Source: Micromonospora purpureochromogenes (GTDB lineage Bacteria > Actinomycetota > Actinomycetes > Mycobacteriales > Micromonosporaceae). Taken from it: a stretch of DNA of 64,000 nucleotides. The stretch is from contig NZ_LT607410.1 of the NCBI RefSeq assembly GCF_900091515.1, forward strand, positions 1,798,001 through 1,862,000. The letters run 5' to 3'. The notes beneath the pieces are model-generated. The model was not told the DNA's origin. It saw only the letters and a program-made list of their open reading frames with translations, and made no database searches. Positions 31,859 through 32,904 of the stretch are shown one piece after another. How positions within the stretch are numbered: position 1 is the first letter of the stretch; each line of letters starts with the position of its first letter. Made by a program: the position numbers and the translations under genes.

Positions 31859-32904
31859 CGGACCTGGACCAGCGGATCGCCGACACACTGCGGAAGCGCG
31901 CCGAGGGCGCGGTGGACACGGACCTGTTGACCGCCCGGGCCGTCGGCGCGGGGCGGGCCCGGCGGCGACGTCGCGGGGTGGGCGCGGGCGCCGCGCTCGG
32001 GCTGGTGACGGTGCTCGGCTTCGGCGCCACCACGGGCGGCGCGCTGCCGGTGCCCACGCCCTGGTCGCACGCGGCCCCGACCGCCGCCTCGATCGCCCCG
32101 CCCCCGGCCCCGGACGCGCCGGTCGCGGCCGTCTCGCCGGAACTGGTCGGCACCGACGCGGGCGTGCTGCACTTCGGGGTGGACACCACCCGTGCGCGCT
32201 ACCTCGGCTGGGAGTCCGGGCGCGGGGTGGAGAGCGTCCTCGTCGAGGTCGCCGGCGGGCGGCGGGTGGCGATCGACGTGGCGCCCGGCCCGACCGAGGT
32301 CGAGCAGGCCGGCCACGAGGGGATGAGCTACGGCCCGGCCCGGACCGCCTCGGCCGACTTCGACGGGCAGGTCGAACGGGTCCAGCCGGCCGGCCCCGGC
32401 GGCGAGCCGGGCTGGGTGCTGCGCTGGCGGATCGGCCCGTTGCACGCTCGGGCCACCACCGTCGGCCCGGACGACACCGCCGTGCGGACGGCCGTCGGGG
32501 CGCTGCGGATGGACCGGGCGCACCGGTGCCCCTCCCCGCTCCGGCTCACCACGCTGCCGGCGGACGCATTCCTGGCGCGCTGCGCGGTCAGGTGCGCCTT
32601 GGGGATGCCGAGCAACTCCAACTGCTCGCCCCGCGGGGAGCGGTAGGCGGCTCTGCCGCCGATCGTCCGGTTACCAGTGGCTCGACCCCCGGCGATCTCC
32701 GAGTGGCGCTCCAGGCGGACCTCCAGCCGCTTCTCCCCGGGCGCGACGACGGTGAGGGTCACGTCCAGTGAGTCGGGGAAGTTGACCACGCTGACCGCGT
32801 ACTTCGGCTGGCCGCATCAGGGGTTCACCGAGACCGACGCGGCCACGGTCCTGGGCGGGGCGCGGATCGCGGGCGACCTCACCCGGCCGGAGAGCTGGGA
32901 CTGA
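31855..32904 (+). pseudogene. Sigma-factor-linked membrane protein gene broken by an internal inversion
   Basis: From GTG 31855 (overlapping the sigma factor stop) the frame encodes a basic cytoplasmic N-terminus, one membrane helix (about residues 40-58) and an outside domain. Read as given it stops at 32646 after 263 residues, the last 20 looking unrelated. The segment 32592-32790 reads sensibly only on the minus strand (VVNFPDSLDVTLTVVAPGEK, then GNRTIGGRAAYRSPRGEQLE and LLGIPKAHLTA). Plus-strand sense resumes at 32791 (LTAYFGWPHQGFTETDAATV to RPESWD and TGA 32904). Inverting 32592-32790 gives one uninterrupted frame of 349 codons across both junctions. Role unknown; the position suggests a membrane regulator or anti-sigma-like partner. 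Confidence 0.8.
32583..32799. repeat. 9-bp inverted repeats bounding an inverted 199-bp coding segment
   Basis: CGCGGTCAG (32583-32591) and its complement CTGACCGCG (32791-32799) flank the inverted segment 32592-32790. In both orientations the repeats encode in-frame residues (A-V-S on entry, L-T-A on exit), so re-inversion is seamless. Confidence 0.8.

What the first reader, a model, noticed from the sequence alone, without database searches (positions are those of the whole stretch)
32583..32799. A 199-bp coding segment is inverted between 9-bp inverted repeats
Seen directly: the sigma-linked membrane-protein gene loses sense at about 32591. The minus strand of 32592-32790 then reads VVNFPDSLDVTLTVVAPGEK through LLGIPKAHLTA, and plus-strand sense resumes at 32791. 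CGCGGTCAG and CTGACCGCG bound the segment. Re-inverting it gives 349 in-frame codons from GTG 31855 to TGA 32904 with both junctions seamless. The length is unchanged, so the frame match at both ends is strong evidence of a real inversion event. It could be an on/off switch, a fixed micro-inversion from template switching, or an assembly error.
Basis: seen in the sequence. Interest (0 to 1): 0.85.

Follow-up and report, generated by a model that had tools for sequence, protein, structure and literature searches.

The report
Flipped gene piece, probably one-off mutation
In this Micromonospora genome a 199-base piece inside a sensor-like membrane protein gene has been flipped between two 9-letter mirror-image words and cuts the protein short; it looks like a recent one-off mutation in a gene pair whose other member is also broken, not a designed switch.

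Summary
Window 32592-32790 is reverse-complemented relative to every orthologue examined: its minus-strand reading matches 29 of 29 fetched genus loci, in line with both flanks. Three proteins at 84-85% identity have the collinear form. Among 160 genus genomes only the window's own lists an opposite-strand match of the segment (listing cut at its weak end). Perfect 9-bp inverted repeats sit at the junctions; 1.4e-4 of random breakpoints do as well.

A dedicated switch is not supported. The repeat is at most 6 bp in the 29 orthologues. The genome gave no serine-recombinase match and no tyrosine-recombinase match within 0.9 Mb. A 464-kb sample held no comparable second case. The adjacent SigE-family sigma gene has its own frameshift.

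The parts
31363..31858 (+). SigE-family (TIGR02983) sigma factor gene, frameshifted near 31503-31507; region 2 and region 4 lie in different frames
   Evidence: Pfam and NCBIfam matches on the two pieces apart; alignment with 29 relatives
31855..32591 (+). 5' part of the membrane-protein gene (helices, linker, first extracytoplasmic domain), still in frame
32583..32591 (+). left 9-bp arm CGCGGTCAG
32592..32790 (-). inverted 199-bp coding segment (start of the RseB-like C-terminal domain)
   Evidence: tblastn against 29 loci; profile match on the minus strand at G000:C1:1830577-1830801, E 3.8e-33
32644..32646 (+). TAG that ends the present reading frame (263-aa product)
32791..32799 (-). right 9-bp arm, CTGACCGCG on the + strand
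32791..32904 (+). 3' part of the gene, cut off from the frame by the inversion; ends at TGA 32902-32904
   Evidence: C-terminal query matched all 29 loci

Best explanation
A recent, sporadic intragenic inversion: 199 bp flipped between 9-bp inverted repeats that are there by chance, most likely by polymerase template switching or by recombination between short inverted repeats, in the gene of a membrane protein encoded in overlap with a SigE-family sigma factor. The flip puts a stop after 263 codons and removes the last extracytoplasmic domain, whose predicted fold is that of the C-terminal domain of RseB/MucB. The sigma gene carries its own frameshift, so in this sequence the sigma/sensor module looks inactivated. 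Shown: derived orientation, repeats at the junctions, truncation, sigma frameshift. Inferred: that the chromosome is as assembled, the molecular mechanism, the loss of function, and the sensor/anti-sigma role.
For: Collinear form in 29 of 29 genus loci and in P0001-P0003; opposite-strand match listed only in G000 of 160 genomes; 9-bp repeat at both breakpoints, 1.4e-4 for random ones; repeat 3-6 bp at the same sites in 29 of 29 orthologues; no PF00239 match and 16 PF00589 matches, none within 0.9 Mb; no comparable second case in 464 kb; sigma frameshift. Rates for inversion at 12- or 23-bp inverted homology within a gene are in print (PMC7451550, passage), and template switching giving spacer inversion (PMC8604942, passages).
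Against: The window's segment and C-terminal part carry 0 residues unique to it, against 7 in the N-terminal part (one of these only the GTG start read as V): the flip is too young to show decay, which also fits a switch or an artefact. The spacer (199 bp) is longer than those in the papers seen (2-5 bp substitutions, 17-33 nt), and the arm (9 bp) is shorter than the 12-23 bp. Sigma codon-position counts show no relaxed constraint (8/2/10, within the spread of other rows). The DNA of the nearest relatives (P0001-P0003) was not available, so arm length just before the event is unknown.
Confidence: 0.68

Rival explanations
1. Assembly, consensus or culture artefact: the natural strain has the collinear orientation and the flip arose in data processing or in the sequenced culture.
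For: One genome only; no decay in the segment; a second lesion, in the sigma gene, 1 kb away, while a 99%-identical sigma from another contig (P0043) is intact.
Against: Single-contig genome, completeness 99.99, contamination 0.15; a 9-bp repeat is far too short to mislead an assembler (general knowledge); no comparable second inversion in 464 kb.
Confidence: 0.17
2. Reversible switch (intragenic inverton): a recombinase flips the segment back and forth and toggles the C-terminal domain.
For: Precise flip with perfect repeats at both ends; both parts still codable, no decay; 16 tyrosine-recombinase domain matches exist somewhere in the genome; intragenic invertons are in print (title of Chanin 2024 seen in the reference list of PMC11868660).
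Against: Repeat not conserved (29 of 29 orthologues at most 6 bp); no other flipped genome listed; no PF00239 match, no PF00589 match within 0.9 Mb; arms do not extend beyond 9 bp; CGCGGTCAG 6 times in the window against 2.9 expected, reached by 6 of 100 shuffles, so not a clearly enriched site; sigma partner broken in the same sequence.
Confidence: 0.1
3. Linked loss (compatible with the best explanation): losing either the sigma factor or its sensor makes the other useless or harmful, so both were lost, and the module is lost now and then in the genus.
For: Two lesions in a 1.5-kb gene pair here; a different one-base length change in the sigma gene of L026; membrane-protein matches split between frames or pieces in G069, G123 and G140; P0163 joins sigma region 2 to part of the membrane protein on a 1,489-bp contig.
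Against: By my count of the rows, 70 of 75 other genomes with a strong match keep the membrane protein open over nearly its whole length; draft errors could explain several broken copies; no fitness data.
Confidence: 0.25

Closest known systems
Spontaneous inversion between short inverted repeats within a bacterial gene (work of Miller and co-workers, seen as cited in PMC7451550)
   Same: Inversion inside a gene between short perfect inverted repeats, no dedicated enzyme needed
   Different: Arms here 9 bp, there 12 or 23 bp; here seen as a natural allele, there selected in the laboratory
Template-switch spacer inversions (PMC8604942, passages) and primate microinversions (PMC8755829, abstract)
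   Same: Segment between short inverted repeats copied in reverse; frame and length kept
   Different: Spacer of 199 bp here against a few bases or 17-33 nt there; here it destroys the protein
Intragenic invertons (Chanin et al. 2024, title seen; paper not held)
   Same: Inversion inside an open reading frame between inverted repeats
   Different: No evidence here of both orientations, of repeat conservation or of an invertase
RseB/MucB regulators of sigma-E
   Different: Here one polypeptide with an N-terminal helical part; no Pfam match at E 0.01 in 39 members and no PDB sequence match better than E 0.45

Membership tests
Micro-inversion between short inverted repeats | Segment is the reverse complement of the orthologous segment, flanks collinear | tested here: met
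   29 of 29 loci; P0001-P0003
Micro-inversion between short inverted repeats | Inverted repeats exactly at the breakpoints | tested here: met
   9 bp; 1.4e-4 of random breakpoint pairs
Micro-inversion between short inverted repeats | Fixed in the strain's chromosome | not testable with these tools
   no reads, no second isolate
Intragenic inverton (phase-variable switch) | Both orientations found in one strain or species | not testable with these tools
   one genome per species; near-own records may be left out
Intragenic inverton (phase-variable switch) | Inverted repeats kept among relatives that keep the gene | tested here: not met
   3-6 bp in 29 of 29 orthologues; DNA of the nearest three not available
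Intragenic inverton (phase-variable switch) | Invertase encoded nearby | tested here: not met
   no PF00239 match; 16 PF00589 matches, none within 0.9 Mb; a distant enzyme is not excluded
SigE-family sigma factor (TIGR02983) | Match to the family model | tested here: inconclusive
   both pieces match best to TIGR02983 (51.5 and 104.9 bits), each below the whole-protein cut-off of 141.55 because the gene is split
RseB/MucB | Fold of the C-terminal domain | tested here: met
RseB/MucB | Sequence match to the family | tested here: not met
   39 members against Pfam: 0 families at E 0.01, and no MucB/RseB family among the 6 at E 10
RseB/MucB | N-terminal large domain fold | tested here: inconclusive
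   the comparison covered mainly residues 223-338; the first domain was not searched alone

The most novel reading that the evidence does not exclude
A young, lineage-specific intragenic inverton in an actinomycete: the 9-bp repeats let the segment flip reversibly and so toggle the RseB-like sensor domain of a sigma-linked membrane protein.
Probability: 0.08. Interest if true: 0.65.

Novelty: new member of a known kind. Interest (0 to 1): 0.3.

Why it matters
It is a clean natural example of a gene broken by a precise short-repeat inversion, which annotation records only as a shorter protein. It also points to a family of sigma-linked membrane proteins in Micromonospora that matched no Pfam model here and whose last domain is predicted to fold like RseB/MucB. 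If the flip were reversible it would be a sensor-domain switch in a genus of antibiotic producers.

Tried and rejected
Recurrent inversions in this genome: a codon-score scan of 464 kb (window plus 20 stretches of 20 kb; 44,908 inverted pairs of 8 bp or more, 30-1500 bp apart) passed 17 pairs, against 14 of 44,484 pairs with a displaced arm. Of these, 11 of 17 and 12 of 14 have segments over 350 bp; they look like neighbouring genes on opposite strands, but none was checked one by one. At 350 bp or less it is 6 against 2; with a gain of at least 20 it is 1 (this locus, re-inverted score 27.8) against 1 (score 3.5). An earlier version was too permissive (60 real, 29 control). The runner-up, L088:1429-1638, is collinear in relatives and was rejected. 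The scan uses no homology, so it can miss cases.

Origin of the segment from another copy: apart from the locus itself, 9 matches of 26-88 bp in the own genome. Phage origin: no match. Codon-position test on sigma: uninformative. Looking for a same-species version of the membrane protein: one search listed only P0004 and three fragments; the genome that holds P0043 gave no listed homologue, and I cannot tell whether it lacks the gene or the record is withheld. Literature searches (open-licence papers only, listings seen) showed no paper with this locus in its title or abstract start. Papers of which I saw passages: PMC11868660, PMC8604942, PMC4272514, PMC11892184 (nothing used), PMC7451550; abstract: PMC8755829.

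Full report
WHAT IS THERE. The window is G000:C1:1798001-1862000 of a single-contig genome of 6,674,134 bases. The closest named relatives of its genes are Micromonospora; the species is not told and I do not name it. A SigE-family sigma gene starts at 31363 (best match of both pieces TIGR02983) and overlaps the start (GTG 31855) of a membrane-protein gene. That gene reads sensibly to 32591, then loses sense and meets TAG at 32644-32646; the minus strand of 32592-32790 reads as the missing part, and plus-strand sense resumes at 32791. CGCGGTCAG and CTGACCGCG flank the segment exactly.

IS IT AN INVERSION. Yes, relative to the relatives examined. In 29 of 29 fetched genus loci (L011-L039; L010 is the window itself) the minus-strand segment matches in the strand of the whole-protein match. 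P0001 and P0002 (named M. purpureochromogenes) and P0003 (sp. U56), 84-85% identical, align through both junctions. A profile search of 160 genus genomes, the own one included, matched in 106. Only G000 lists an opposite-strand match of the segment (profile 244-318, E 3.8e-33) and a TAG inside its forward match; the listing is cut at its weak end. The profile contained the window's re-inverted row, which favours G000's own score. By my own count of the rows, 75 other genomes match at E 1.4e-56 or better: 70 span nearly the whole profile without a stop, and 5 (G052, G059, G069, G123, G140) are split or partial.

IS IT MORE THAN CHANCE. Inverted 9-mers 100-400 bp apart occur about 7 times per kb in this GC-rich window and 4 pairs lie in this CDS. 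But only 1.4e-4 of random breakpoint pairs carry 9 bp or more, so the repeat very probably took part in the event.

SWITCH OR ONE-OFF. At the aligned arm positions the longest inverted match is 3-6 bp in 29 of 29 orthologues and 9 bp in the window; the DNA of P0001-P0003 was not available. The genome gave no PF00239 match and 16 PF00589 matches, none within 0.9 Mb. CGCGGTCAG occurs 6 times in the window, 2.9 expected, and 6 of 100 shuffles reach that. A scan of 464 kb of this genome found no comparable second case (controls and limits under Tried and rejected), and its runner-up is collinear in relatives. These results speak against a dedicated switch. Against my reading, or neutral: the segment and C-terminal part carry 0 residues unique to the window, against 7 in the N-terminal part (one of them only the start codon); the three relatives have 1, 4 and 2 in the segment with outgroup P0005, and 1, 2 and 0 with two outgroups. 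So the flip is young, which also fits a switch or an artefact.

THE PARTNER IS BROKEN TOO. The sigma gene differs by one base in length near 31503-31507, which puts region 2 and region 4 in different frames. An automatic test called the frame open at 160 aa or more in 29 of 29 relatives, but L026 passes only because its own, different length change runs the frame on into the next gene, so 28 of 29 are intact. P0043, 99% identical to the window's C-terminal sigma piece, is an intact 164-aa protein from another contig. P0163 joins sigma region 2 to part of the membrane protein on a 1,489-bp contig, a deletion or a contig error. A young double lesion in this genome makes an inactive module likely, if both lesions are real.

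MECHANISM. Most likely two template switches, or recombination between short inverted repeats. [quoted passage not shown] template switching giving spacer inversion and arm homogenisation (PMC8604942, passages); microinversions of 17-33 nt flanked by inverted repeats between human and chimpanzee (PMC8755829, abstract). The spacer here is longer than in the last two, the arm shorter than in the first. The nearest three relatives have N where the window has S at the left junction; that could be arm homogenisation, but S also occurs in P0008, P0010 and P0014, so this is only a hint. Intragenic invertons are known (Chanin 2024, title seen in a reference list; paper not held).

VERDICT. A confirmed, derived micro-inversion that truncates a gene: a known kind of mutation. 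A switch is unlikely, an artefact possible, and reads would decide.

Noticed in passing
31363-31858: The sigma gene upstream is frameshifted; the shifted frame runs straight on through the membrane-protein start, giving one 427-aa ORF up to 32646.
   Followed up: yes
L026 (G095:C35): In another species the same sigma gene has a different one-base length change that also runs the frame on into the membrane-protein gene; it is a 230-contig draft, so a sequence error is possible.
   Followed up: partly
P0163 (1,489-bp contig, named M. purpureochromogenes): A 129-aa partial protein joins sigma region 2 directly to the middle of the membrane protein: an independent deletion in the same gene pair, or a contig error.
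   Followed up: no
31855-32904 and its orthologues: A family of sigma-linked membrane proteins without a Pfam match whose last domain is predicted to fold like the RseB/MucB C-terminal domain.
   Followed up: partly
about 23390-23437: A stretch of about 48 bp matches many places of the own genome and of G001, G151 on both strands, also itself on the opposite strand, so it looks like a dispersed palindromic repeat.
   Followed up: no
about 23494-24000: Several other places of the own genome match this stretch at 81-92% identity, a multi-copy gene or element.
   Followed up: no
28241-31321: The 1026-codon ORF upstream of sigma reads, in its later part, as two similar consecutive dehydrogenase-like halves (by eye from the translation; no family search made).
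   Followed up: no
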